Assembly: GCA_025174535.1 (NCBI GenBank) | Contig: JALBUN010000034.1 | Location: forward strand, 102,501 to 166,500 | DNA length: 64,000 nt | From: Cantharellus purpuraceus | Taxonomy: Eukaryota; Basidiomycota; Agaricomycetes; Cantharellales; Hydnaceae | Direction: 5' to 3' | Part shown: one piece after another, positions 1,057 through 18,102 of the stretch | Layout of the letters: each line of letters starts with the position of its first letter | Numbering within the stretch: position 1 is the first letter of the stretch | Program-made: the position numbers and the translations under genes | Notes under the pieces: model-generated | Seen by the model: the letters and a program-made list of their open reading frames with translations, nothing else | Told to the model about the DNA's origin: nothing | The model's database searches: none

Positions 1057-1430
1057 TGCATTTTACCACGGCTGCTGCTGCTTCCTCAGTACTCACCAAC
1101 CTAAGAGATTACATGGAAGCAATCTACAGTGACGGTGCACCAACCAAGGATGAATGGACTGTTGGCATTTTGCTACATGCCATGAGCAACAGTGTCTTTG
1201 ACAACCTACGAAAAATCCTTATCGCCTCCTCACTTACACTTACCCCCTCCGACATCATACAACGAATTGAAGCAGAAGCACAAGAATCCCATTATCACGA
1301 GCAGATCAAAAATGAGGACACCCTGCTAGCTGCCAAACAGAAGCAGGCAAAGGGTGCCAACAAATCTCTAAAATGCTCAAACTGTGAGAAAACTGGACAT
1401 TCAATCGAGAAGTGTTGGGAAAAGAGGGGA
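1057..1430 (+). pseudogene. Ty1/copia gag fragment with CCHC zinc knuckle
   Basis: This open stretch encodes the C-terminal half of a copia gag: a helical region followed by one zinc knuckle, C-S-N-C-x4-H-x4-C, at about 1,375-1,416. In a full element it would form the nucleocapsid. The N-terminus is missing, because the reading frame begins at the edge of the upstream repeat. The frame is cut at 1,430 by the start of an LTR, TGTATGGGAAC. The right-hand copia copy (56.4-58.1 kb, opposite strand) carries a similar but not identical knuckle, so two copia lineages may be present. Confidence 0.75.
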
Positions 1431-2838
1431 TGTATGGGAACCACCTTTTCCCTATCAAATTCCATTTATGCAGCACCAATGTGCTATTCTTTGCTTTTCC
1501 ATTCCTAAATATCAGCATATATTTGATGCTTGTACCTGGAATGGACTTATTTAAATATTCTCTATTTTTCCATATTTTTCTGGGAATATTCCATGCAGAA
1601 CTCGGCCCAGAATCATTTATTTCTGCTGTGCTACAGTTGTGGACCCATAGGCGCCCACAAACCTTCACACAGCCAGCTCTCCCCCTTTGGACCAGGCATT
1701 TGGCCTGAATTCAAGCTCAGATGTCTCTGATCAATAAATATTCTGTAACTTGACAACCACAGCCTCTCAGGGCACTATTTTCCATGGAGATCATCACCTG
1801 AGATGTGGCTATCCATGGCTGTCCAAACCAGTGCAGAAAACTGTTGATTATGGGAGAAAGGGGTTAGGAGATAGGGGGAACAGGAGCACATAGGAGGCTC
1901 AGGAGGTTGAGGGGGAGGTACCATAACATTCTAGCTGTTTCCTTCTATTATTAGATAGAACTTTCCAGAACCATTATTCAGCTCCTGATCAGTGTTAATG
2001 CAGTGATCAGAACCTGTGATTGGCTTGGAATATTCTACCCCTTTCTTCCACCTTCCACAACCTTCCAGTAGTTTCCATCTATTAATAGGTAGAATATTCA
2101 GAACCATTAGTCAGCCCCTGTAAATACAATATATAAGGAGGCCATTCTGCCTCTGAAATAAAAACATATTCAACATATCCTACCCATCTTCTGCACACCA
2201 GTGTGACTAGAGTGACATACAGTGTCATCCTCTATCTCAGTAACTGTTGATTTCCAGTTCAAGGATCTTTTACAGTTGTGTAACTGTACTTGATTGCACT
2301 CGAAGTAGTGATATTCCTGCTTGGGGCGTGAGTGTAGTATCTGCCTCACGTGACTACAAATCTACAGGGTGAGATTGTCTGTCAATAGTCCTGCCATTAG
2401 TGCTCTTTGTTTAAGTTACTAGTGTGTACTGCCTTTGCAGAGCATTAGAAGCTTGAACTTGTGTGAAGCAGTTGCTAGACTACTTCACACATTGCTGTTA
2501 CCCACTTCTGAGTGCCACTGGTTGGACGGTTGGATTCATCCACCTACTTCCTTTAGCCTCTAAGTGCATTCCCCTCATTTTGGAATATCTGGATCCCTAA
2601 GTGTCCATGAACTCTAGACTCTGGAAGTCTTATTCATTTCTTGCTGCTAAGAAACGTATTACTTTTCTGCGTATAGTCTGCATTGACCAATACAAAGGAT
2701 TGTAACCAAAGTACAAACGTTAAATTGTTTCTGGAGTTGTGCTGCAGCAGGGTTTGATATTCTTCTCAGCTGTTCATTCACGGAATTGTGGTGATTTAGA
2801 GTTTGCCCTAACACCATAATTTTGCGGGTTCCAAAACA
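1431..2838 (+). mobile_element. LTR, family A (TGTATGGGAAC...CCAAAACA), solo
   Basis: Family A LTRs begin TGTATGGGAAC and end CCAAAACA, with TG...CA termini. The orientation is set by a TATATAAGG box near 2,130 followed by an AATAAA near 2,157. This copy interrupts the copia gag. Its flanks (GGGGA and GTCGG) do not match, so it has been rearranged since insertion. A stretch near 1,850-1,915 resembles the interior of the copia LTR at 13.6 kb, so the copy is mosaic. It lacks the TGACTC array of other copies. Confidence 0.8.
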
Positions 2839-3150
2839 GTCGGCCTCGGAGACCCATCACCAGAGTAATTATTATTAGATTTCAAATATGTATTTAAGTT
2901 GCCCAACTGGGGACTTCATTCCCCAGTTTGAATATTGAATCACGCCTAGTTCCTAAGTCCAATCCTAACTCTCTAAGTCGTACTCTGTCTCCGAAATCTC
3001 AGACACCGGTATTAGTGAGGGCGCAGCACAGAAGCTGAAGCCAAGTCCATTCCAACCCCCATGACATACCTGACTCCTCTGACTCTGACCAAACCTCCGA
3101 CCAAACCTCTGACCCAATCTCCGACCCCCAATCAGACCTAGTGCATAACA
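2839..3150 (+). mobile_element. LTR, family C, 3' part only
   Basis: Matches the right half of the complete family C LTRs at 16.3 and 59.4 kb, and ends 'ctagtgcataaca'. The element's 12-bp minisatellite is replaced here by short, degenerate C-rich units (about 3,075-3,130). The first half of the LTR is missing, and it is fused directly to the end of the family A LTR. Confidence 0.7.
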
Positions 3151-3793
3151 AGCAGGCAAACCTGTTATTTACTTTCCAGATGTCATTGTCTGCTTACATG
3201 TTGTCCCACAGTACAAGCACATCAATGACTTGGCATCCATAGTCTTTACACAACATCGGTGGATGGGCTGGCACTCCTTGTCACCATCAGCATTGCCCTC
3301 ACCCTCACTCCCATCATATTTGGAGGGAGGGGTGCTCATGCACATCACTAGATGGCCCACCTCTGGCACCTCATCCAGCTTGATGCTCCTCCCTGCCTGA
3401 ACCTGCTCCAGCTCCACCCCAGTCTCACTTCCACCATATTTGGAGGGAGGTGTGCTCATCAGCATCACCTGACCGGATGGGCCTGCCTCCGATGCATTGT
3501 CCTGCTTGGCACTCCTCCCTTCCAGATGCAGCTCTGCCCTGATCTCACTCCTGCCATACTTGTGGGGGGTGTGCTCATTCTTGACTTAGAAGAGCTCTCC
3601 ACAATCTGTCCTTGTGCCCCCCCAGATGAGGTTCACTCCCCATCACACTTGTGCAAACCAAGCAAATGTCTCCATCATTTCTGGGTCAAGGGGCCTGCCT
3701 CTGAGTTGTGGGCCTTTTCAGGACCCAATTGTAAGTGCCCAGGGTACTTACTTATTGTAGTATGTAGTCATAATTAATGTATACAGCATCCCA
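3151..3793. other. Unassigned stretch with a duplicated peptide frame on the minus strand
   Basis: The minus strand is open from 3,468 to 3,169 and encodes two imperfect copies of a motif beginning M-S-T-P-P-S-K-Y, followed by a C-x2-C pair. The plus strand is also open over much of this region. I cannot assign it to a family. Its position next to gypsy coding sequence makes an element fragment more likely than a host gene. Confidence 0.35.
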
Positions 3794-5835
3794 TTAAGGA
3801 ATGGTGTCTTCTTGGTAGATATATGTGCCCATAGGGTGCATATGTATATTTATTATGTAAGCCAGTAGACCCAAGTACACATGTGGGTCCACAGGTAGAA
3901 AAAAAAACTTAACCATGCTGTATAACACATTGCCCAACCAATATACTTGGTTGAGTTCTGTGCAATGGTGTGAACTAAGACACACATTTACACTTTTTTG
4001 AACTTCCAAAGGAAGAATCAATTGATTCTTCCTCATTATTGAAGTTTTCTAGTCAATACTAGAAAACCAGCAGTTGCTGGTGTACAGATGTATACCAACC
4101 CCCCCAGTCACTCATAGAAGTGAGCAACTAGTAAACTAACTTAGTTAGTCTACAAAGATAGAAGAAAGAAAGGAGTCATCATAATGATGACTCACAGTAG
4201 AGTGAGTCATACTGGCAGCACCCAGGACATCATAAATGATGAACGGCAGCACATAGCTAGCAGCAGAAGCTCCCATGAAGGGGAGCTAGACCCTAGAGAA
4301 GTCACAGGGACTTCTTGTAAGGAAGACTCTAGAAGAGAGTCACCATGATTGCGAGACCACACAGACAATCAGAAAATAGATCATCTGTCAAACAAGAACC
4401 CTTCATCGAGTGGTTCTTTGATTAGAGAAGAAAGGAGGAGAGTCATCAACTGTCTCCAATGTTCCTAAAGGAAAGGAACATGCTCAATATATGAGCACAA
4501 GTAGAAGTAGAAGTAGCAATACTTCTACTAGGGAATCACACAGCATGGAGTGGCATGAAACCCACAGGTCAATTGCAAGATTGACTGAACAACTCATGCA
4601 TAATCAACATGAGATGAAGAGCATAGTGAAGCTAGTGCTCAGGCAGCCAAGATAGCTGCCAAAGCAGGGCATGCTGCCACTACTATGGGGCAGCAAATTG
4701 CAGAGCTAGGAACAATGTTAAAATTGCTCCAAGAAAACTCTGAGTGATGCAAGTCATGTCACCAAAGATCAGATTCTCGACAAGAATCTGAATCCAGAGA
4801 GTCTGGATCTCCCTGGGGTGAGGGGATCCAACCAAATGATCAAATTCCCCCAATGGAGGGAATTAGAGACCCAGTAATCCCTGTGAGACAAGGATTACTG
4901 ATCCAGATTGAAAAGGAAACTCCTCAATCTATGGCAAAGGAGCTTGATCAAGAGATCAAGCTATGGAAACAATGAGAAGTTGAGGCTTCTTGTAAACACA
5001 GCTTAGCCCTCAAACAGAAGGCTAAACATGCAGAGCAGGAGCTTGGCCAGCTGTTTAGAGAGCAGTGGCCCCAGCAAGAGCTCAATGTGGCTGTCAATTT
5101 AAACTGACAGTTGTGACATGTGCTGAACAGTTACCAGCATGTATGGGCAGTGAGCCTTTCAGGAGACACCTACCATGAGCAATGAGATACCCAATGGGTA
5201 CCTCAAGAAGATGTTCCCCATAACAGGGAACAATCAGTGCCATTGACCCTAGAAGGTCAAGGCATACCAGATCAATTGGACACAATTGATCCTATCAACA
5301 GCATTACTCACATGGTGCAAGTAGCCATAGTTGATAATAGAGATACAGACCCAGAGAAGTCTGTACTTGCCAAGGTGGGCATTAAGGTATTGCCTCCTGA
5401 GCAATATGCAGGAGGTGCAGATCTCAAAGAGTTCTAGATCTTTGTAGCAGGTATGCTATGATGGCTGAAGATGAATAATCTCTAGGGCTATCAAGTACAA
5501 AGTTTCAGCTATTGTACTTAGGCACTCACCTTAAAGGTGAGGCCCAGGAATGGCCCTACAGGAATGTAGAACATTACAACAGGGCAGTCCAAGACTGGAC
5601 CCTGGAAACTGCAATCCAAGGGTTGCAGTGTAGATTCCTACACACCCTGATGCATCATCATGTGTCAAATAAATTTGACTCTGTAATACAGGGTCAAAGG
5701 ACCATTCACAAATTAATGAATGACCTAGATAAGTATGTGGGCCACATAATAATGCTGCTGGATGCATACACATACAGGAAGAGGTTTGTAACTGCAATGC
5801 ATGAACCTCTGAGACAAGAAGTCCTCAAGAAGGGC
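3794..5835 (+). pseudogene. Ty3/gypsy gag, upstream part, decayed and hairpin-rich
   Basis: The stretch 5,237-5,835 encodes, with scattered stop codons, the retrotransposon gag domain typical of basidiomycete gypsy elements. Landmarks are L-P-P-E-Q-Y-A-G-G near 5,390, L-Y-L-G-T-H-L-K-G-E-A-Q-E-W near 5,515, and an L-M-N-D-L-D-K-Y helix near 5,715. In an active element this protein would form the capsid. The upstream 1.4 kb is likely the gag N-terminus or leader and has several stops. CpG is strongly depleted. Almost every 20-50 bases hold a short inverted repeat (see findings). The gag frame breaks after L-K-K-G at 5,835 and resumes at 11,757. Confidence 0.75.
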
Positions 5836-7418
5836 TTCCCAGGTGCAAACGGCCAAGGACATACACCATGAACTCCCCTTCCTCACCACGGACCTCCCTT
5901 AGACATCCACTAACCCTATCACATGCCATACAAACATAGATACATACCGTAATACCTCAGTGCTCCACTCTCGAACTATCCTTAGCATGCCATTCTCCTT
6001 TCTCCTACCATCATCTTAGAAGCCAGTTGTTGTACAAACCCGCAGCTTTCAATTTGATCTGGTTGTTGGTGGACTGAAGCCTCGCGCTTAGTTGTTAAAA
6101 ATCCTTAAGACCTTACCCTCTTCATTTTTGCCTCCAGCTTTCTATTTCATCTTCTTCACCCCTATCCAACTCGTGCATGGGACTCAAGTTGATCTGGTTG
6201 ATGGGTGAACTGAAGCCTCACGCTCAGTTGCAAAATCATTCACCTCATCCTCCTGGTTTTCTTTTTGCAGCCGGCTTTCAATTTCTTCACCCCCAGATGT
6301 GATGATAACCAAGTCCCCCCCGGCCATCTATAGTGCATCCCTTGCATATCAGCCATCACTGCTTCCACACCTATTGCCTAGGTACACCAATGGCACTTGG
6401 AATAGTCCATCCTGGAAGTCCCGCTGCTGAGGGTTCCTCAGCAACCCCTGCTAGATGTCGCTTTCGACTGTGCAGGGGTGGCCACCATACATATGGCCTG
6501 GGCTGCTTGATTTACCTCTGCAACTGTCAATGCAGGGTTAGGGGGTTTTCAATAATAAAACCATTGAGAACATTAAACGAATGATAGTTTGGTCGGAATC
6601 GCAAGCTTCAGCAAGGAGGTTAATGACATAGCGAGCAATCGAGAAAGAACATGGTCGTTCTTGCCCATTGTTACTGCATGCCGTGGTACGAAGTCTGCAA
6701 GTTTCACACTGTCCCTGGAAACACTAAACACGGAGGAGTTTATAAAGTCTACTGAACAAGTACCTAGTTGGCTTGCAGCAATCCATGACATACTCCGTGT
6801 GACAAACTTGCCAGTAGAATTTCACCGTCAGGTCCGCGTGAGTCATCTAAAGTAATGATTCAACCGCATTTTCCCGGTGTTTGCCATGTCAGGATACCGG
6901 TTTGTGTCATAATACACTGGAGGGATTTGGGTGTCACCCCAGATCGATGTACATGCATGTTCGCTTTGGTACAGTGCCTCTTGACGCCCATTGATGTACC
7001 TTCGGCCTATATTTAAGACCTTAAATCACGCCATCCGTGAATGCTCACCCGGCATTGAGATCGATAAGGTCTTTCAGTGCAGGCCGTTGCTTCACGTCCA
7101 AGTTGGCATGCAATGCAAGCGCGACTTGCATCTGCTGACGCCTTGCTTCATTCTATCTGTACTCTTCAGCATCGTTTCGCTCCATCTCACTGTTGTCTCG
7201 ACCCTGCGTAAAACCATACCAGTTCAAGTATGAGTCTACCCAGAGTCATGCTCGACAGTGAGGTCACACGCGAAGTGTTGATGTCACGTCCTTGAGTTTG
7301 AAAAGGACGATTGGGAACGATTGTATCATGGAGTGGAGCATTCTTTTGAAATGATTTGCGAACAGGTGCGATGGACTTGAGGTGAGGCTCTGGTAAAGTA
7401 GTGAATTCATTCTGTGAA
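5836..7418. other. Left part of the block that splits gypsy gag; no gene resolved
   Basis: Sequence composition changes abruptly at 5,836: hairpins end and CpG returns. Around 6,040-6,300 there are imperfect tandem units of about 140 bp, each with 'gatctggttg' and 'actgaagcctc'. Short open frames occur at 6,589-6,855 and 6,991-7,233, but I recognise no product and see no supporting splice pattern. Confidence 0.4.
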
Positions 7419-9190
7419 CTACCTCACTGCTTCCCCTGACCGCCTCCAGACCACTAACTCCCTCGTCGGAGACTCAGCAGCTCGTCCCGTCATATCACTA
7501 TCGCTATACTCGACAGTGACAGTCTGAGAGACTCTAATGTTGATGTTTGTTCGTTGAGGGAACTCAGTCATTACTATCGTCGACGGGGGATTGAAATCAC
7601 GATCCCCCGACGTTCTCGTCGATAGCCCGAGTCCAGCCTGTTCGCATTTAGCATCCCTTATACAATTTATACAGATACATACGTACCCTAACGATAATCA
7701 TCGAAAACGTGATCCCCTAAAAAGTAGTCAACAACTAAGAGTCAGCAAGCACCCTGTCGACTAACAAACACATACAATAATTGGGACCAATATATCAAAT
7801 CCTAGCGGGCAGTTACTCATCATCAGACAAATGCATCTGGAAAGCGAAAAGAAGGCCATTTCATACCGATATATTGCACGTCACTGTATGCCAGGTACGT
7901 TGCAAGCGATACCACAAGCGCTGTCGAATAAATTGCGCCACTCTCCAGCATAATCGCAATCACGGGCCACAGCGAGCGGCCCCTGTTCTCAGGCGCAATG
8001 CTGACATGTGCCCGCCAGATCCTGTACCTATAGCCCGTGTCCTGTTAACATAGGTCGACAGAGGTGGGAGTAATGTTACATACACGATCATGAAGGTGTC
8101 GTAGAGGTTCTGTACCAACGACGACACGAAGAACGCGGCTGCGCAGCCGGCCAGACTGGGCGAAAAGACCTGCCAGATCGTTGGTGTTTGATTCAGAAAT
8201 GCCTGGTAGTCAGACTCACCCCTGAAGTTGTTCTGCTATTGATCACCTCGATCGCGATGCCTGACGCTAGAGCAGTCGCAAAGGGTGAAAGGTTAAAAAT
8301 AATAATACCAATACAGGTTGCACGTACTGATACCGCCACACAGCAGGACCATAGGTGCGACAATTGTCCTTCTATTGTGACCTGAAGCGACATTAGTACG
8401 CGACAGAGTGGATGTCATCCAGGAGACACACCCCAGACTATGTACAGTCTGTATATCTGTATATCGCAAGTAAGTGCTTCAACTTCCAAACACGAGTTAT
8501 CAAGTGACGCACAGACAATGAATCGGCAACAGCTGTCAGAGTGATATACACTCCAATACGTGTCACCTGCAACTCGTGTCGCACAACAGTCCCTAAAGCA
8601 GCCAGAAGGAGGCATACCTGTTTCCTATGAGAGGGCTGCGCGTGAGTTGCGATTGAGGGACGGCTAAATGTGGGACATACCAGTTATTCGTCGACGAAAA
8701 GTAGGTGGGGCAGCCGTTGGAGTCCTGCGAACACTTTGGCAGCGAACCAATAAAACGCTCTGAGATAAATGTGAGTTTCCACTGAGTGAAATGCCAATAT
8801 GTGGCGTACCCATAGCCATACTGAGACTTAGAGAGTAGTGGATAACAATGAATATCCACTGAAAGCAAAAGACTGAACAACTGGACGACAGTTGAACAAC
8901 ACCTCAGAACCTACCATCACGACTGCCATTATAAGAAAAGGGCGGTTGACACCCTCTGAACGCCGTCTTAAGACATGTAAGCTATGAATGTCTACAGCCG
9001 TGAAGATGTAGTGGCTCACCCGTAAAGTATGTAGTAAGAGCAAATCAGGAACATCGCCTGCATGTGCGCAAGGTGTCAGTGGAACAGGACATGTGTCATT
9101 GATGTCATAATCCATGCTTGCCTGATACGCTCCAAACAGAGCAGACTGGAATACGAATCCGATTGTTACGGCGATGGAAACATTCATCAT
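7419..9190 (-). CDS. Multi-pass integral membrane protein, 15 exons, 332 aa
   Basis: This resembles the large family of about seven-segment membrane proteins found in mushroom genomes, usually annotated as hypothetical (DUF6533/DUF6534-like). Exons, 5' to 3' on the minus strand: 9190-9122, 9057-9020, 8981-8915, 8858-8810, 8759-8681, 8624-8618, 8566-8513, 8456-8432, 8381-8334, 8260-8220, 8169-8084, 8027-7867, 7801-7776, 7716-7687, 7637-7419. All junction phases agree and total 999 nt. Visible family marks are I-Y-R-L-Y-I-V-W-G after the third hydrophobic segment, Y-R-I-W-R, then E-S-G-A-I-Y-S in the sixth, and L-V-P-I-I-G-I-T-F-S near the seventh. A polar Ser/Thr-rich tail of about 70 residues follows and is probably cytoplasmic. 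Exon 6 is only 7 nt, and the first intron has a GC donor. Function is unknown. The gene appears intact although it lies inside a split gypsy gag. Confidence 0.8.
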
Positions 9191-11756
9191 TGTGATTTGA
9201 GAGAGGCACAGAGGGAAGGGAGTGAGTTCAATGGACTCGGACCCTCATTTTCTCCACAGCTCAGCACTTATATAGCATTGCAGAGGCGGATTCCTGGGCT
9301 ATTTCCCATGTCCTGAGAGTGTCCTCGGATCTTCACAGCGTTCTAGAAGCTGGAAATCAATGTACGAAGCACGAAGCATAAGCAATTTCTGATTGCGCTC
9401 ACCTCGGCTCGGTTGTGTTTCCATTGCTAACCAATGCGATTGGCGTGTACGAGCAAGCAAATACAAACTCCAGCCGAGAAAATACAAGGTACACACCCGA
9501 CAAAAATCCGAAAACGTGTTCTATAGACCTGCTGCAGTTTATGCCTCAGGCATACAGGGCACTCGAGCTTCAACTCTGTGCTCCTCCCACTTTTACGAGG
9601 ACCATGCAGCGCAATCCTAACACTATATTGATGTCTCCCACGAACCTAGCACCCTCTTTCCAGATAAATACCGGGCCTCCCCGCTCGACTCGGAGCGACC
9701 CACACACTAGGGTCCAAAGAGAATTGTCGCAATGCCATAGGTAATATATCGAGGAAGTTACATTCACCCGGAAGGACAAGAGGAGATAACAGGCCTTAAT
9801 GTGGTTGGCATCAGAAAGTGGCTGATTTCCAGAAAGAACACAAAAGGCATTGAACAATATAACTTGCCTTTTCGAATACCGCATTAGAAGTCCTGTGTCT
9901 ATTCGCTTCGTGGCCCTTGATTACAGTCACAAATGTTGCGATCTGGGAATGAATCTTTGCTTAGTAGGAACAGTGTGCCACCAGGACTTACCCGCTGTAC
10001 AGAGAACCACAGAACGGAAAGTCACCAACCTGGCTGACAGGCTGTGACTTCGAGGACAGCGAATGATTCGCGAAGATATCTCGCGGCGTAAACATCCCCT
10101 AGTCAAAAGCACTGCACCGACTGCGGTGGGCTAATTGTTGTGGAATATTTGGCAACCAGCAGTGGAGCGTTGGTAGATCCACACTGGTGACCATTACATC
10201 GTGCTGTATCGTTCTTCCGCGATACATCAGTGAGCACATTCTTGAAGCTTGAAAGCCGGTTGACACCATGTTGTGTTTCGCCCAGGACCCTCGTCGTATA
10301 CTAAGAGGAAGGAAGAGCCCTACAACCAATGTAGTGAGAGTCTCATATATCGCTCCTATTAATTGCGTTGATTTGCTTTAAAAATATTGCCACCAACTTC
10401 AGAGAAGCTACAGTAGTAGTGGTATATATCCTGAAGAGAAGCAATGAAGGTGCATGCGCCTGCTGCATTAGGTCTTCAGAGAAGCTTCCCTACGCAGAGA
10501 AAAGTGTACGCTGTAGCATGAGGAGCACTGGTTGTACTAGAATAGCAGCGGTAAGCAAACACATTCCTGTCTTACAGAACACGGGCTTGGAAGGAATGAC
10601 GTAAATCAAGCTGGCACTACGTAGTTCGCCCAGCAAGTTGGTTAGGTTAAGCGATGCGACGTTGTGGGACCATGCGGAACGAATTCCAAGACCATCAACT
10701 TTCATAGTAGTCGCTATAGATTATGCGCGGTGCCTGCACTTTGTTCCCACGCGAGATCAGCGTGGGTGGGTCCGTGAATCAGCAAAGAGTCATGATCACG
10801 GACAGTGTGCATATTGAATTCCTGCAATTTCCCGCTGCAGATGTGGAGTCTGCCCGCTTCCCTACGCATCACTTGATAATTACCTTGGCAAAAATTCATT
10901 TTGCTGTGCAAGACACCACAAACCGGGCATCTGCATTCGCCAATCTTTCGGCACCCACCATGACATCACGAAGCTCGGGGACAATATAGACATCGTGGCG
11001 TGCTTGTATCCACCATCCCTGAGGCCTGATATCCCCCAAGGCTCTCTCGCTTTCAAAGGACTCATCAATGACTTCGGCGTTGGCTCGCAAGGTGATTGGC
11101 GTGCTTTGTTAACTCAGTCTAAACCATCCACTTTAGGCGGGACTTTCCCTGTTCGAAAAGCATCTCAAGAATTACGAGCCGGAGGACCCTGTGTATGAGA
11201 CATACACGGACAGTAAGGGCAAGACGCGTCGGCGTAAGGTGTGTTGTAACTTGTAATTCGGTGGTTGCACAAAAGGGTGCTGAGACACGTGTAGAGGGGG
11301 CTGCCACCTGGTCTCTCAGCGCGGGATGCCAAAGTCCTACGAAAGGTGAAGAGATGGGCACGTCGCCTTGATAGGAGCTTTTCACTCTATGGTGTGCAAT
11401 TTTGGTGGACATTCATTATCGGCGAGGGTTCTCATGACGTTTATGTATTCTCGAGTTCATTGACAGTGCCCTAGGGTTAATTCCTGTCGTTGGTGATGGA
11501 GTCAACGCCGGATTGAATTATGTGCTTGTTGTGAGGAAAGCCAGGGAAGCAGAGTGCGCTCGTTCTTTGAGTTTACCCGTCATGCATAATCCTCATTGAT
11601 GAATAGGATTCCTGGGTGGTTGGAGCGCCGTATGCTAATGAACAACGCCGTGTCGATGGGAGTAGGGTAACTATCATCGCTTATTATTTTAAATTCGAAT
11701 CAGCTCATTGCAACGGTTGGTGGTAGGTTGATCCCATTGGTTGGAGATATCCTGGC
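9191..11756. other. Right part of the inserted block; no gene resolved
   Basis: 2.5 kb with normal CpG content and many short open frames, but no recognisable product. The minus strand at 10,490-11,090 has frames that look more protein-like than their surroundings, for example E-L-R-D-V-M-V-G-A-E-R near 10,960. They could be a decayed gene. I could not join them with convincing splice sites. Confidence 0.35.
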
Positions 11757-12676
11757 AACATTCAAGCTGAGTTTAGCAGTATAGAGCAGTTGTACGAAAC
11801 TGCTTGAATGATAGAGGAAGCAATGTGATACCACCATGGTATGTGAGAATGCAGCTAATGCGTCCTCCTCAACCCATATACCAGTAGTCAATAGAACTAC
11901 TGGTATGATGAATACAGGGAGTTGACCCACACCCCATGGATGTATGTATACGGCTCCTAACACACACTCACAACAAGCAAGTGTGTCAAGGTTGGAACCC
12001 ATAATGGAAGCTCCAGGTCCAATTCCAACAATTACCCCTTCAAGGATAATTATCAATTGAAGCCACCAGCACATGTGAGTGGTGATCAATCAAACAATGT
12101 TGCCAGTAATGTTGTGTGCTATGAATGTGGCCAGACAGGTCGCATGTGACCCAGCTGCCCCAAACTAAAGGGCAACATAAGGTCAGCTGTGGTCCAAAAG
12201 GACATGTCCTCACACATAGTGGAGGACAATGTAGATGGATTCTCCCTGATAGAGGGAGAACATGAAGAAGCAATGGATGATCCCAAGGACCATCTAGACA
12301 AAAAATTGCCAGCTATAGAAGTAGCAGACAGATGGGATGAGGAGGTCACCCCATATGAATGGGACAACCAAGATGATGCCCCCAAAAAGGAGGCTATGCC
12401 AACATATCACTCTAATGCAATACAAATTCCACTGAAACACACCTATGCAGTGCGTTTCTGTAGTGCAACAAGATTCCCAACAAGCAGGGAATCATGACAC
12501 CTGCATATAGCTGCTGTCAGCATCAACAGATCAACCAAACCTATGTATAATCATAGGACCCAACAGAAGTCAACAGTGCAACCCAATAGGCTGCACATAA
12601 ATAATAAAACAATCTCCAGGTATTGGGAGATTGGTGGAACACTTGCTCACTGTCTATTAGACAGTGGGAGCAAGGG
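11757..12676 (+). pseudogene. Ty3/gypsy gag C-terminus and protease start, decayed
   Basis: Continues the gag frame broken at 5,835: A-E-F-S-S-I-E-Q-L near 11,763, then a proline-rich linker. A zinc knuckle follows at 12,117-12,158 (C-Y-E-C-G-Q-T-G-R-M-stop-P-S-C), in which the zinc-binding His is replaced by Arg and a TGA stop is present. An acidic linker follows, then the start of an aspartic protease, L-L-D-S-G-S-K-G, near 12,651-12,676. An LTR fragment cuts it there. It is CpG-poor and as hairpin-dense as the upstream part, which argues that both parts were once one element. Confidence 0.75.
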
Positions 12677-13562
12677 TATTTTGGAACCCGCAAAATTATG
12701 GTGTTAGGGCAAACTCTAAATCACCACAATTCCGTGAATGAACAGCTGAGAGAATATCAAACCCTGCTGCAGCACAACTCCAGAAACAATTTAATGTTTG
12801 TACTTTGGTTACAATCCTTTGTATTGGTCAATGCAGACTATACGCAGAAAGGTAATACGTTTCTTAGCAGCAAGAAATGAATAAGACTTCCAGAGTCTAG
12901 AGTTCATGGATGCTTAGGGATCCAGATATTCCAAAATGAGGGGAATGCACTTAGAGGCTAAAGGAAGTAGGTGGATGAATCCAACCATCCAACCAGTGAC
13001 ACTCTGAAGTGGGTAACAGCAATGTGTGAAGTAGTCTAGCAACTGCTTCACACAAGTTCAAGCTTCTAATGCTCTGCAAAGGCAGTACACACTAGTAACT
13101 TAAACAAAGAGCACTAATGGCAGGACTATTGACAGACAATCTCACCCTGTAGATTTGTAGTCACGTGAGGCAGATACTACACTCACACCCAAAGCAGGAA
13201 TATCACTACTTTGAGTGCAATCAAGTACAGTTACACAACTGTAAAAGATCCTTGAACTGGAAATCAACAGTTACTGAGATAGAGGATGACACTGTATGTC
13301 ACTCTAGTCACACTGGTGTGCAGAAGATGGGTAGAAGTGGTAGAATATGTTGTTATTTCAGAGGCAGAATGACCTCCTTATATATTGTATTTACAGGGGC
13401 TGACTAATGTTTCTGGAATATTCTACCTATTAATAGATGGAAACTACTGGAAGGTTGTGGAAGGTGGAAGAAAGGGGTAGAATATTCCAAGCCAATCACA
13501 GGTTCTGATCACTGCATTAACACTGATCAGGAGCTGAATAATGGTTCTGGAAAGTTCTATCT
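12677..13562 (-). mobile_element. LTR family A, partial, reverse orientation
   Basis: Begins with the reverse complement of the family A terminus (TTTTGGAACCCGC) and runs through the R region and TATA box to about 13,560. There it is cut by the start of a copia-type LTR. It replaces the rest of the gypsy protease. Confidence 0.75.
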
Positions 13563-14317
13563 TGTTATTTGGAAGACCGGACTTCTAGGGGAGAGGGGAA
13601 CAGAGGGGGAACAGAGGGGATAGGAGGAATAGGAGCACATAGGAGGCTCAGGAGGTTGAGGGGGAGGTAGGAAAGCGAAGGGAAATGATTAGGAGGGAAG
13701 AGGAGAAGCCCCTGTAAGCTCCACACACATCAGATCATTCTCCTATATTTCTTTTATATTTTATTTCATCATTTTTTCCCTATTGGCTCCACCCCCCATT
13801 TCGTTTTTATCACAAGTTTCTTTCCCATGTTTCAAATGACACAGAACTTTTATCACGAGTTATCAGCATGCATATCTTGTATAAAACACGCCTAGCTAGA
13901 TATGCAATGGACCAGAGAATTTTCTCTCACCTGCTTTTTGTTGACTGTGTCTGAACTATTCGTTTCTGGAATAACTCCAGAACGAACGCGTATCTCTACA
14001 ATCTTTTGCATCCTCTTCCAGAGTATTGCAACATATATTCGAATCCCAGTTTTCGAAGCCTAAGCTCCACTGGTTGATTTTCTATTAAGCATTTACTCTC
14101 GTTCAAGTCATCTGCTCCTGCTCCCTGCTCAAATTGTCAAAATCTAGATGAATATCACACCAAATCCCATCAAACTTCGTAGGAAGATACTACTCAAGTA
14201 TATCTTCAATTCGATTATGCATACATCCAGTTCCCATCACTCCCTCTGTCTCTATTCGAAATCTACTCTCCACACACCCCCAGCAAGGCGAAGTTTCTTC
14301 AACATATCTAACAATAG
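13563..14317 (-). mobile_element. Copia LTR, truncated copy
   Basis: Starts TGTTATTTGGAAGAC and matches the copia LTR at 52,301-53,230 as far as the Cys-free A/T-rich segment near 14,300. It lacks the 14-bp minisatellite and the far terminus. It is fused to a reversed piece of family A LTR at 14,318-14,418. Confidence 0.65.
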
Positions 14318-14632
14318 AAGGAAACAAGGGGTAGAATATTCCAAGGCAATCACCTGATCTGATCACCCATCACCTGCTCTGATCCCTGAACTAGGCACTG
14401 ATCAGGCAAAAAGAAGGGTGTATGGGAACCACCTTTTCCCTATCAAATCCTATTTATGCAGCACCAATGTGCTATACTTTGCCTTTCCATTCCTAAATAT
14501 CAGCATATATTTGATGCTTGTACCTGGAATGGACTTATTCAAATATTCTCTATTTTTCCATATTTTTTCAGGAATGTTCCATGCAGAACTCAGCCCAGAA
14601 TCATTTATTTCTGCTGTGCTACAGTTGTGGAC

Positions 14633-16059
14633 TGTTTTGGAACCTGCAAAATTATGGTGTTAGGGCAAACTCTAAATCACCACAATTCCATGAATGAACA
14701 GCTGAGAAGAATATCAAATCCTACTGCAGCACAACTCCAGAAACAATTTAACATTTGTACTTTGGTTACAATCCATTGTAATGGTCAATGCAGACGATAC
14801 GCAGGAAGGTAATACGTTTCTTAGCAGTAGGGAATGAATAAGACTTCCAGAGTCTAGAGTTCACGGATGCTTAGGGGTCCAGATATTCCAAAAAGAGGGA
14901 AATGCACTTAGAGGCTAGAGGAAGTAGGTGGATGAATCCAACCGTCCAACCAGTGGCACTCTGAAGCGGGTAACAGCAATGTGTGAAGTAGTCTAGCAAC
15001 TGCTTCACACAAGTTCAAGATCCTAATGCTCTGCAAAGGCAGTACACACTAGCAACTTAAACAAGAGCACTAATGGCAGGACTATTGACAGACAATCTCA
15101 CCCTGTAGATTCGTAGTCACGCGAGGTAGATACTACACTCACGTCCAAAGCAGGACAATCACTACTTCAAGTGCAATCGAATACAGTTACACAACTGTAA
15201 GCGACCCTTGAACTGGACAATCAACAGTTACTGAGATGTAGAGGATGACACTGTATGTCACTCTAGTCACACTGATGTGCAAATGATGGGGTAGAAAATG
15301 GTTTTTTATTCAGAGGCAGAATGGGCTCCTTTTATATTGTATTTACAGGAGCCGACTAATACTACTGGAAACTTCTACCTATTAATAGATGGAAACTACT
15401 GGAAGCTAGTGGAATATGTGAGAAGGGGGTGGAAGTTTCCTAGCCAATGAGCTGCTTGGATTTGCTCTGACTCATGGCATGAGTCATGGATGGAGTCATA
15501 GTGTGACTCAGAGCAGGAGTCATAGTATGAGTAATCACAGGAGTCATAGCATGAGTCATGGCAGGAGTCATTGCATGAGTCACCATTACTCAAATAACTC
15601 AATCAATACTTCATTTCCCGGGCTGATTAGCACAGCTATGGGTAGGAACAGCTTCTATTGAACTCTCCACTGAAAATGGAGTCAGGAGATGCAGTGGTTG
15701 TGAAGATATTGAGCATTTACTGGCAGTGGTGACCAGATTGAGTCGGAGATTGAAATGAGTCATGTGATTGAAAATGAGTCAGTTGTCCGGGTGACTCCGG
15801 CTGACTTTAAAGCTGCTGACATCTGCGAAGGTTTGTGGGTCCATGTGGGTCCCAAAACTTTGCCCAGCAGAACAATAAGTTTGTAGACTCATTTCTGCAT
15901 GGAAAATTCCTGAAAAAATATGAAAAAATAGAGAATATTTGAATGGCCCTGAATCAAGAAAGCAGCAGATATATGCTGATATTTTAAGGCCATGAAGCGA
16001 AATTGTACAGTTTCAGGACTTTAAACAAGATCTTTTAAGGGAAAACCAGTTCCCATACA
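14633..16059 (-). mobile_element. Complete solo LTR family A, 1,427 bp, TSD TGGAC
   Basis: On the plus strand it reads TGTTTTGG...CCCATACA, so the element runs on the minus strand. It is flanked by a perfect 5-bp duplication, TGGAC, at 14,628-14,632 and 16,060-16,064. Removing it restores 'gttgtggacccatagg', as in the uninterrupted copy at 1,640. It carries the TGACTC array. Confidence 0.92.
15467..15600 (-). promoter_or_regulatory. Array of TGASTCA/TGACTCC sites in the LTR upstream region
   Basis: About a dozen copies of TGACTC or its complement in 130 bp, several being perfect TGASTCA, the site bound by Gcn4/AP-1-type bZIP factors. It lies just upstream of the TATA side in this LTR's own orientation. 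No binding is shown. Confidence 0.6.
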
Positions 16060-16302
16060 TGGACCCATAGGCACCCACAAACCTTTGCACAGCTGGCTCT
16101 CCACCTTTGGACCAGGCATTCGGCCTGAATTCAAGCTCAGATGTCTCTGATCAATAAATATTCTCTAACTTGACAACCACAGCCTCTCAGGGCACTATTT
16201 TCCATTGAGATCATCATCTGAGATGTGGCTATCCATGGCTATCCAAACCAGTGCAGAAAACAGGGTGGACACCCTTCTTTTTGCCTGATCAGTGCCTAGT
16301 TC

Positions 16303-17053
16303 TGTTATGACTATATTCATTAACGTCCAGATCCCCATCCGATCCACTCAGATCCCCGTGCATATGAAATCTATACTCCATTTGGAAACCGCCATCTCCA
16401 TCTCCCTGTCCAATTGTTACCGCTGATTCCACCCATCTGTCTCCGGTTCCAATTGATGCATCAGCATCACCATAGGAACCCGGACATCCGTCCCTGTTGG
16501 ACTCAGACATACTCATGCAAGGCCGTTGGCCTCAGAGACCCATCACTGGAGTAATTATTATTAGATTTCAAAATATGTATTTAAGTTGCCCAACTAGGGA
16601 CTTCATTCCCCAGTTCAAATATCGAATCACGCCTAGTTCCTAAGTCCGATCCTAACTCTCTAAGTTGTACTCCGTCTCCAAAATCTTGGACACCAGTATT
16701 AGTGAGGGTGCAGCACATAAGCTGAAGCCAAGTCCGTCCAACCACGACATGCTCCGGCTCCAACCCAACCTCCAACCCAACCTCCAACCCAACCTCCAAC
16801 CCAACCTCCAACCCAACCTCCAACCCAACCTCCAACCCAACCTCCAACCCAACCTCCAACCCAACCTCCAACCCAACCTCCAACCCAACCTCCAACCCAA
16901 CCTCCAACCCAACCTCCAACCCAACCTCCAACCCAACCTCCAACCCAACCTCCAACCCAACCTCCAACCCAACCTCCAACCCAACCTCCAACCTGAACTC
17001 TGACCCAATCTCCGACCCAATCTCCGACCCCCAATCGGACCTAGTGCGTAACA
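16303..17053 (+). mobile_element. Complete solo LTR family C, 751 bp, TSD AGTTC
   Basis: Reads TGTTATGACTATATTC...CTAGTGCGTAACA, with duplicated AGTTC at 16,298-16,302 and 17,054-17,058. It holds a TATTTAAG box near 16,580 and a long 12-bp minisatellite. It was inserted into the outer family A LTR. Confidence 0.92.
16761..16992. repeat. 12-bp minisatellite, unit CAACCCAACCTC, about 19 copies
   Basis: Near-perfect tandem repeat inside LTR family C. The period of 12 contains no stop in any frame, so long frames on both strands across it are artefacts. The minus strand is G-rich (GGTTGGGTTGGA). Confidence 0.95.
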
Positions 17054-17417
17054 AGTTCAGGGATCAGAGCAGGTGATGGGTGATCAGATCAGGTGATTGC
17101 CTTGGAATATTCTACCCCTTGTTTCCTTCTATTATTAGATAGAACATTCCAGAACCATTATTCAGCTCCTGATCAGTGTTAATGCAGTGATCAGAACCTG
17201 TGATTGGCTTGGAATATTCTACCCCTTTCTTCCACCTTCCACAACCTTCCAGTAGTTTCCATTGACCAATACAAGGGATTGTAACCAAAGTACAAACATT
17301 AAATTGTTTCTGGAGTTGTGCTGCAGCAGGGTTTGATATTCTTCTCAGCTGTTCATTCACAGAATTGTGATGATTTAGAGTTTGCCCTAACACCATAATT
17401 TTGCGGGTTCCAAAACA

Positions 17418-18102
17418 GCTACAGCTCTCCAGCAGCAAATAAAATGTTCACTACAATTATTTGACCATGTGCAGTGGGAAAAATTGTGTGCAGTTTCCCT
17501 TTTTGGCACAGAAGGCACTGGCAAGAGTTTGATATCCACTTGATTGTTCTCATTCCTTGACGCAGAATGAGCAAAAAATATGAGGGTTATTGAACATACA
17601 GAACAAAAGAGCTCACACATGCAATATGTATCTTCGCACCCCTTAGATATGCTCACATACCAGCCGGAGCCACCCCGCCAGAGAAAGGACTTTATGAAGC
17701 TTGAGCCAGTAGTCGAAGACACGCCCCCGACTTTTCCCCTCTCATTCAGGGAAACATATTTCCAAGTTGTGACCGTCCCCAGCCCCACACGCACAAATAT
17801 ATTCTGGCGTGATGCTTGGTCACTTAGCATCGGGCTTGCATGCGTGGCCTAAGGTATTACTAAAGTTCTTATCACCTCACACCAATATTGACATGGGATG
17901 AAGAGTGCTCCAAATACGTCTATGTTCACATATCTATTAAAGTCTGGCATGTTTGAGATTGTGCTATGATGAAGAAATCATGAGGAAACGACACAGCCAA
18001 ATGAGTGATACGGTCGGAGGAGTCAGCCCATGAACTCCAACCTTAACATATAAATGATGACAACAGTTCTGAATCACGCGTTGCGTATGGCTGAAAGCCC
18101 AT
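17418..18102. other. Boundary between repeats and the gene island; no gene seen
   Basis: Single-copy-looking sequence downstream of the TBC gene. The minus strand is open at about 17,830-17,420, but I recognise no product. It likely contains the 3' UTR of the TBC gene. Confidence 0.4.

What the first reader, a model, noticed from the sequence alone, without database searches (positions are those of the whole stretch)
3794..5835. Gypsy coding strand built almost entirely of short hairpins
I noted roughly 50 inverted repeats with arms of 6-11 bp and loops of 0-16 nt over about 2.9 kb (this region plus 11,757-12,676), often end to end. Examples: a perfect 22-bp palindrome at 4011-4032; 10-bp arms with a 4-nt loop at 4044-4067; 10-bp arms with a 1-nt loop at 4073-4082 and 10-bp arms at 4173-4193; 9-bp arms at 4872-4900; 9-bp arms at 4941-4962; 8-bp arms at 5270-5291. 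The sequence is protein-coding (gag), so the pattern must have coexisted with codon constraint. The neighbouring insert and LTRs do not show it. Possible meanings are selection for a structured genomic RNA (packaging, translation control, or dsRNA that feeds or blocks RNAi), or a replication mechanism that copies arms into each other. I know of no described element with this design.
Basis: partly seen in the sequence, partly recalled or inferred. Interest (0 to 1): 0.87.

Follow-up and report, generated by a model that had tools for sequence, protein, structure and literature searches.

The report
Retrotransposon built of short hairpins
A jumping gene, broken in the copies seen here, is written along nearly its whole length, even inside its protein genes, as a chain of small perfect hairpins about 23 letters long, a design I did not find described and which looks as if it was preserved while the element was alive.

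Summary
Perfect inverted repeats (arm ≥7, loop ≤16) number 29 in window 3794-5835 against 2.0 in dinucleotide shuffles, and 8 against 0.9 in 11757-12676. The element is a decayed Ty3/gypsy copy. Sister copies in the same genome show the density through gag, protease, pol, a third region and the LTR; five copies of other gypsy families there stay within synonymous-shuffle range. Three alignments give 149 stems in 8.6 kb, arms 7-13 bp. Arm and loop lengths trade off, so the span clusters at 23±3 nt. After insertion the arms decay independently. Between two subfamilies arms changed about 3 times less than loops and linkers, so the stems were constrained while the family was active. Sense G·U pairs are not favoured over A·C mismatches, which argues against a purely sense-RNA explanation. 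Eight loops are exactly inverted in single or sibling copies, the known footprint of template switching, apparently too rare to maintain the stems. Best reading: genome-wide ordered local structure under purifying selection, like that of some RNA viruses but stronger. Its molecular level and purpose are unresolved; DNA of relatives from other genomes could not be obtained.

The parts
3730..3992 (+). 5' LTR remnant of the element (TGTAAGTGCCC...TTTACA), decayed: one hairpin with arm >=7, four with arm >=6
   Evidence: start seen in 17 fetched loci, four of them near-identical duplicates; a 3' LTR of 278 bp in L026+L030 at 11553-11830, preceded by a polypurine tract; hairpins
3993..5835 (+). gag region, frame broken in this copy; 3794-5835 holds 29 perfect hairpins with arm >=7
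   Evidence: a sister gag segment matches Ty3_capsid below the curated cut-off
5836..11756 (.). unrelated insert that splits the element; hairpins 2.03/kb vs 0.84/kb in shuffles
11757..12678 (+). end of gag and start of protease, 8 hairpins with arm >=7; cut off by another repeat from 12679
   Evidence: homology 11772-12295 and 12289-12667 to L013, hairpins; zf-CCHC and protease matches in sister copies
4010..4033 (.). perfect 24-bp palindrome (12-bp arms, loop 0)
4044..4067 (.). 10-bp arms, 4-nt loop
4066..4081 (.).
4173..4193 (.). 10-bp arms, 1-nt loop
4872..4900 (.). 9-bp arms, 11-nt loop
4941..4962 (.). 9-bp arms, 4-nt loop
5270..5291 (.). 9-bp arms, 4-nt loop
11878..11906 (.). 11-bp arms, 7-nt loop
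12648..12666 (.). 9-bp arms, 1-nt loop in the protease start

Best explanation
A Ty3/gypsy LTR retrotransposon family whose length, LTR included, is a chain of local, perfectly paired stem-loops of about 23 nt. While the family was active, purifying selection kept the stems paired, because some step of its life needed its nucleic acid locally folded (candidates: RNA in the particle, evasion of long-dsRNA or accessibility sensors, or single-stranded cDNA). It is thus a retrotransposon analogue of genome-scale ordered structure (GORS), with stems that are, from general knowledge, too short for Dicer. Once inserted the copies lose the stems by independent decay of the arms, much of it at CpG. Shown: density, specificity against five control copies, extent, span rule, slower arms, independent decay. 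Inferred: that selection is the cause, and what it is for.
For: Density 9-15 times dinucleotide shuffles in six gag and pol stretches and 9 times synonymous-codon permutation (89 vs 10.0). In five copies of other gypsy families of the same genome (two at 46%, three at 36% RT identity) 13 of 13 long ORFs lie within the range of 60 codon shuffles each. Of 110 distinct gag hairpins, 65 are seen in at least 3 of 19 rows, and many ORF3 stems lie at the same places in two subfamilies 74-81% identical. Fixed subfamily differences: arms 25 of 413 columns, loops 18 of 94, linkers 65 of 418 (arms vs rest P=1e-6); transversions 19 of 1041 in arms vs 71 of 1425 outside (P=3e-5), while singleton transversions among gag copies, mostly post-insertion, are equal (61/1092 vs 85/1581). 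Doubly decayed paired CpGs 205 matched, 189 mismatched: nothing re-pairs arms after insertion. Sense-strand folding energy exceeds shuffles by 39-40% in three element pieces, -6 to 6% in four control copies and the insert. Stem density is lowest in the RT segment (1 in 384 nt, loop <=12), highest in protease and the pol spacer, as if protein constraint opposed it.
Against: Sense G-U is not preferred to A-C (16 vs 26 fixed; composition alone predicts about 18 vs 24), which RNA selection on the sense strand should produce. Only 3 of 17 changed pairs between subfamilies are two-sided (about 0.6 expected by chance, my arithmetic), so covariation is thin. Shared transversions among gag copies show only a non-significant trend (8/1092 vs 20/1581, P=0.25). 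The negative arm-loop correlation is not what a simple stability threshold predicts. The B subfamily rests on 1-4 copies per column, and accepted columns with a single B copy. Coding constraint on arms was not separately controlled; the one partly noncoding set (ORF3 end plus LTR) has arms 6/212, rest 16/234.
Confidence: 0.5

Rival explanations
1. Mutational origin: the element's reverse transcriptase, when it pauses, folds the nascent cDNA back and copies one arm into the other before returning to the template. Repeated over many cycles this turns weak inverted repeats within a patch of about 23 nt into perfect ones, with no benefit to the element.
For: Watson-Crick arms with no wobble preference; span limited to about 23 nt with arm and loop trading off in gag, pol and ORF3; eight exact loop inversions in gag and ORF3 and no reversed or complemented loops, the published template-switch footprint (PMC8604942, abstract and one section). 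Seen in this family and not in five control gypsy copies of the same host, which points to an element-borne enzyme.
Against: Copying should make changed pairs mostly two-sided (3 of 17) and should not slow the arms. Loop flips are private to one copy or a sibling pair, so they may be ordinary host replication errors; pol shows none that is exact. No homogenisation after insertion.
Confidence: 0.27
2. Selection acts on DNA or on both single strands (cDNA hairpins or cruciforms), not on the sense RNA, so that wobble on either strand is equally bad.
For: G-U and A-C mismatches about equally rare on the sense strand; folding excess on both strands (sense 39-40%, antisense 28-39%); LTR copies included.
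Against: I know of no need of an LTR retrotransposon for some 150 DNA hairpins; the excess is slightly larger on the sense strand in 3 of 3 pieces; loops and linkers are A-rich on the sense strand, although the nearest control families are A-rich too.
Confidence: 0.18
3. Dispersed packaging signals: the stem-loops are contact sites for Gag along the genomic RNA.
For: Many similar-sized stem-loops spread over the whole RNA, as in the packaging-signal model (PMC6281560, passages); uniform 23-nt unit.
Against: No shared loop motif was seen by eye (no motif search was run); inverted loops occur; roughly 17 stems per kb is far more than is usually proposed (recalled).
Confidence: 0.04
4. Chance, composition, codon usage or assembly artefact.
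For: none found
Against: Shuffles of both kinds, control gypsy copies, copies at different places about 10% apart, LTR copies.
Confidence: 0.01

Closest known systems
Ty3/gypsy (Metaviridae) LTR retrotransposon with Tf2-1-like SH3 domain
   Same: capsid, zinc knuckle, protease, RT, integrase and SH3_Tf2-1 matches in that order, three of them (capsid, RT, rve) below the curated cut-off; LTR starting TG, polypurine tract
   Different: hairpin chain over the whole element; extra hairpin-rich region of about 2.3 kb between integrase and 3' LTR, without a Pfam match in the two ORF segments tried
Genome-scale ordered RNA structure (GORS) of positive-strand RNA viruses
   Same: largely unbranched consecutive stem-loops along coding sequence, duplexes kept to 14 bp or less, paired sites with less diversity (PMC7642675, passages)
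   Different: an LTR retrotransposon; folding excess about 40% in decayed copies vs 23.4% as the highest virus value in that paper (150-nt windows and dinucleotide shuffles here, 350-nt fragments there, so only roughly comparable); perfect pairing, no G-U preference; stems homologous between subfamilies, whereas GORS pairings are said to be poorly conserved
Template-switch mutation at short inverted repeats (yeast genes; rRNA hairpins)
   Same: exact spacer inversion between perfect short arms (PMC8604942, abstract and one section; PMC8794818, abstract and Discussion)
   Different: there single loci; here over a hundred stems in one element, and no arm homogenisation seen after insertion

Membership tests
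Ty3/gypsy LTR retrotransposon | gag with capsid and zinc knuckle | tested here: met
   Ty3_capsid E=9.5e-6 (25.6 bits, below the 29.1 cut-off), zf-CCHC 28.9 bits (cut-off 20.8)
Ty3/gypsy LTR retrotransposon | pol order protease-RT-RNase H-integrase | tested here: met
   Asp_protease_2, RVT_1 (23.1 bits, cut-off 29.6), Integrase_H2C2, rve (18.5 bits, cut-off 32.6), SH3_Tf2-1 in this order in L013 and L011; RNase H read by eye only, not submitted to Pfam
Ty3/gypsy LTR retrotransposon | two LTRs, polypurine tract, primer binding site | tested here: inconclusive
   5' LTR start in 17 loci, one 3' LTR of 278 bp with polypurine tract; no fetched copy was seen with both LTRs whole; no TGG-type primer site seen
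GORS | folding energy well below sequence-order controls through the genome | tested here: met
   39-40% sense in three pieces, controls -6 to 6%
GORS | paired sites less variable than unpaired | tested here: met
   arms 25/413 vs loops 18/94 and linkers 65/418 in ORF3
GORS | structure is in the genomic sense RNA (wobble tolerated) | tested here: inconclusive
   fixed G-U 16 vs A-C 26
GORS | host is a positive-strand RNA virus that persists | tested here: not met
   LTR retrotransposon proteins; persistence not testable
Template-switch hairpins | spacer inversion between intact arms | tested here: met
   8 exact sites, 0 reversed, 0 complemented in gag (19 rows) and ORF3 (8 rows); pol (15 rows) 0 exact and 3 near entries at two places
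Template-switch hairpins | arm homogenisation | tested here: not met
   205 matched vs 189 mismatched paired CpG decays, P=0.45; 3 of 17 two-sided changes

The most novel reading that the evidence does not exclude
A mobile element that carries a second code over its entire length: on average every 57 nt, protein-coding or not, is written to hold a 23-nt stem-loop, under selection that demands Watson-Crick pairing on both strands or in DNA. This would be a new class of genome-wide nucleic-acid architecture, distinct from viral GORS.
Probability: 0.3. Interest if true: 0.92.

Novelty: new variant of a known kind. Interest (0 to 1): 0.8.

Why it matters
It shows that a retrotransposon can keep its sequence in ordered local hairpins while still coding for Gag and Pol, to a degree beyond the viral values I read. 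It offers a natural test of two open questions: what genome-wide structure is for in elements that also pass through DNA, and whether perfect stems arise by selection or by template switching. The 23-nt span rule is a sharp clue that something of fixed reach is involved.

Tried and rejected
Covariation among gag copies: 25 pairs showed two-sided Watson-Crick changes, but by eye most fall on paired CpG sites, which decay independently, so I do not count them as support. Sense G-U tolerance as proof of RNA: rejected; pooled single-copy counts even favour A-C over G-U (86 vs 43 stems with one such pair), but those copies are not independent. Protein-only test for hairpins in metagenome relatives (codon sets that could pair): not informative, since two of four control proteins score as high (z 3.1 and 3.6) as the family (eight segments, z 0.1-4.7), and relatives average 0.70. 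Codon-phase bias: weak (20 of 89 in the phase with least wobble freedom, 27% in shuffles). DNA of relatives: none in viral contigs, phages or genome contigs; protein relatives exist (425 RT hits, best 120 listed at 54-82% identity; 91 gag hits) but without DNA. Rfam: no match at E 0.1 or below in window 3000-13000.

Full report
What was checked. A script listed every perfect inverted repeat in the window. With arm ≥7 and loop ≤16 the window holds 117; the two 1-kb bins 4001-6000 hold 28 of them. Against 200 dinucleotide shuffles, 3794-5835 has 29 (2.0±1.4, max 6) and 11757-12676 has 8 (0.9±0.9). The remaining window is nearer its own shuffles, although the insert and the repeats at 12679-18000 are about twofold above.

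What it is. The genome that holds the window (G000, 40.15 Mb in 50 contigs) gives 54 stretches matching 3794-5835 (40 of 493 candidates scored) and 150 RT matches (150 of 822 candidates scored; by eye about a hundred belong to the same family). I fetched 20 regions of up to 9.9 kb. One copy (L026+L030) carries a 278-bp 3' LTR after a polypurine tract. Segments of sister copies match a Ty3-like capsid, zinc knuckle, aspartic protease, RT, integrase and a Tf2-1-type SH3 domain, with capsid, RT and integrase core below the curated cut-offs, followed by about 2.3 kb of further hairpin-rich sequence. The element is therefore a Ty3/gypsy retrotransposon of roughly 9.4 kb (estimated from one 5'-truncated copy).

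Extent and specificity. Hairpin-dense stretches largely coincide with homology to the element in the fetched loci; a few short dense stretches outside it were not identified. In the 4.4 kb of L013 after gag (which include a 0.7-kb insert) there are 51 against 4.7±1.9 in shuffles. In 17 open-frame segments, 89 hairpins are seen against 10.0 after permuting synonymous codons (gag and protease are each represented by two copies). LTRs have 3-9 per 278 bp in 15 copies, but the window's own LTR only one. Controls in the same genome: two copies of the nearest other gypsy found (46% RT identity; L033, L034) and three of a common one (36%; L035-L037, near-identical to each other in part) have 0-2.6 hairpins per kb in 13 long ORFs, 13 of 13 within the range of 60 codon shuffles; the highest is 4 against 1.85±1.18. 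So neither the host, nor gypsy coding as such, nor composition explains it.

Anatomy. Stems were called from pairs seen in at least 3 gag or 2 pol or ORF3 rows rather than from single decayed copies: gag 51, pol 65, ORF3 33, i.e. 149 in 8567 columns, arms 7-13 bp, mean loop 5.5-6.7 nt. A random sequence gives 0.5 per kb, but that is a single sequence and not a union over copies, so the fair density comparison is the shuffles. Arm and loop lengths are negatively correlated in all three regions (rho -0.43, -0.27, -0.43) and the outer span is 23.0±3.2, 22.8±3.5 and 23.9±3.4 nt, tighter than when loops are permuted (P=0.0003, 0.0032, 0.0003); random hairpins show neither. 5' arms are C-rich and loops A-rich in five pieces; the nearest control families are A-rich as well, so the A-richness is not telling.

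Dead or alive. Gag copies are about 90% identical to each other in a star-like pattern; 774 of 951 variant column states are transitions (sums). CpG is strongly depleted (observed/expected 0.04-0.18 in five copies). At 41 places where a CpG-type site in one arm faces one in the other, doubly decayed cases are matched 205 times and mismatched 189 (P=0.45). Nothing visibly re-pairs or preserves arms once a copy is inserted. Singleton transversions are equally common inside and outside arms (61/1092, 85/1581). The regularity must therefore date from the time when the family moved.

Constraint while active. A second subfamily (B), 74-81% identical to A in the ORF3 region, was found next to one copy; three further B pieces and one A piece were fetched. 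Many stems lie at the same places in A and B. Among columns unanimous in at least two rows of each group, differences are 25 of 413 in arms, 18 of 94 in loops, 65 of 418 in linkers (one near-duplicate B row dropped; P=1e-6). Transversions, free of the CpG effect, are 11 of 661 vs 44 of 870 in ORF3 (75% majority, some columns with one B row) and 8 of 380 vs 27 of 555 in an LTR and a protease set with one B copy each (P=0.034); together P=3e-5. Shared transversions among gag copies point the same way without significance (8/1092 vs 20/1581, P=0.25). Of 159 pairs, 142 are unchanged, 14 changed on one side and 3 on both.

Which strand. If sense RNA were the selected molecule, G-U should be tolerated. 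Fixed mismatches inside helices are G-U 7, 4, 5, A-C 11, 0, 15 and other 24, 10, 17 in gag, ORF3 (80% agreement) and pol (unanimous), i.e. 16 G-U vs 26 A-C, where composition alone predicts about 18 vs 24. Folding energy beats shuffles by 39-40% on the sense and 28-39% on the antisense strand, controls -6 to 6%. I therefore leave open whether RNA, cDNA or duplex DNA is the selected form.

Template switching. In gag and ORF3 eight loops of 3-5 nt between arms of 8-11 bp are replaced in one copy (or in a sibling pair) by their exact reverse complement with arms kept, and none by the plain reverse or complement; 56 and 52 further loop sites differ in other ways. Pol shows no exact case, 3 near entries and 39 other sites. 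Yeast genes show the same spacer flips of 2-5 nt between arms longer than 9 bp (PMC8604942, one section), and template switching has been proposed to create and maintain RNA hairpins (PMC8794818, abstract and Discussion). At eight flips in at most about 1200 stem-copies of gag and ORF3 (51 stems in 19 rows, 33 in 8, many rows partial), and with no homogenisation, the rate seen here would not keep the stems perfect; a much higher rate during reverse transcription is not excluded and is the main rival.

Comparison. The nearest described thing is GORS: several hundred consecutive stem-loops through a coding RNA, duplexes interrupted to avoid more than 14 bp, paired sites with less diversity, folding excess 15% in SARS-CoV-2 and 23.4% as the highest recorded there (PMC7642675, passages). 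This family shows about 40% in decayed copies, although window size and shuffle differ. Searches for a similar retrotransposon (listings with starts of abstracts, at most 20 papers each) showed none; that covers open-licence PubMed Central only.

Verdict. Real, strong, found in this family and not in five control gypsy copies, and not found described; mechanism partly resolved.

Noticed in passing
window 16686-17081: A 12-bp minisatellite (CTCCAACCCAAC) of about 20 units inside a repeat that recurs in a shorter form at 3083-3152.
   Followed up: no
window 1417-3048, 12679-13562, 14405-15448, 16060-17418: Nested pieces of another LTR-type repeat in both orientations; the piece at 12679 is what cuts off the element.
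   Followed up: partly
L019-L022 (contigs C35, C1 and two places on C37): Four nearly identical stretches, those on C35 and C1 near a contig end and the two on C37 in opposite orientation, each holding element pieces in opposite orientation.
   Followed up: no
L015 603-5401: Two element copies, 96% identical in gag, lie in opposite orientation next to each other.
   Followed up: no
L019 6586-8940 and L026+L030 about 9209-11500: About 2.3 kb of hairpin-rich sequence between integrase and 3' LTR, with two ORF segments (116 and 104 aa) that match no Pfam family.
   Followed up: partly
gag copies L009, L010, L013, L016 and the window: CpG observed/expected is 0.04-0.18, as expected of methylated, silenced copies.
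   Followed up: partly
5' arms of the stems: 5' arms are richer in C than G (for example 0.255 vs 0.204 in L026+L030), which looks the same on both strands; unexplained.
   Followed up: no
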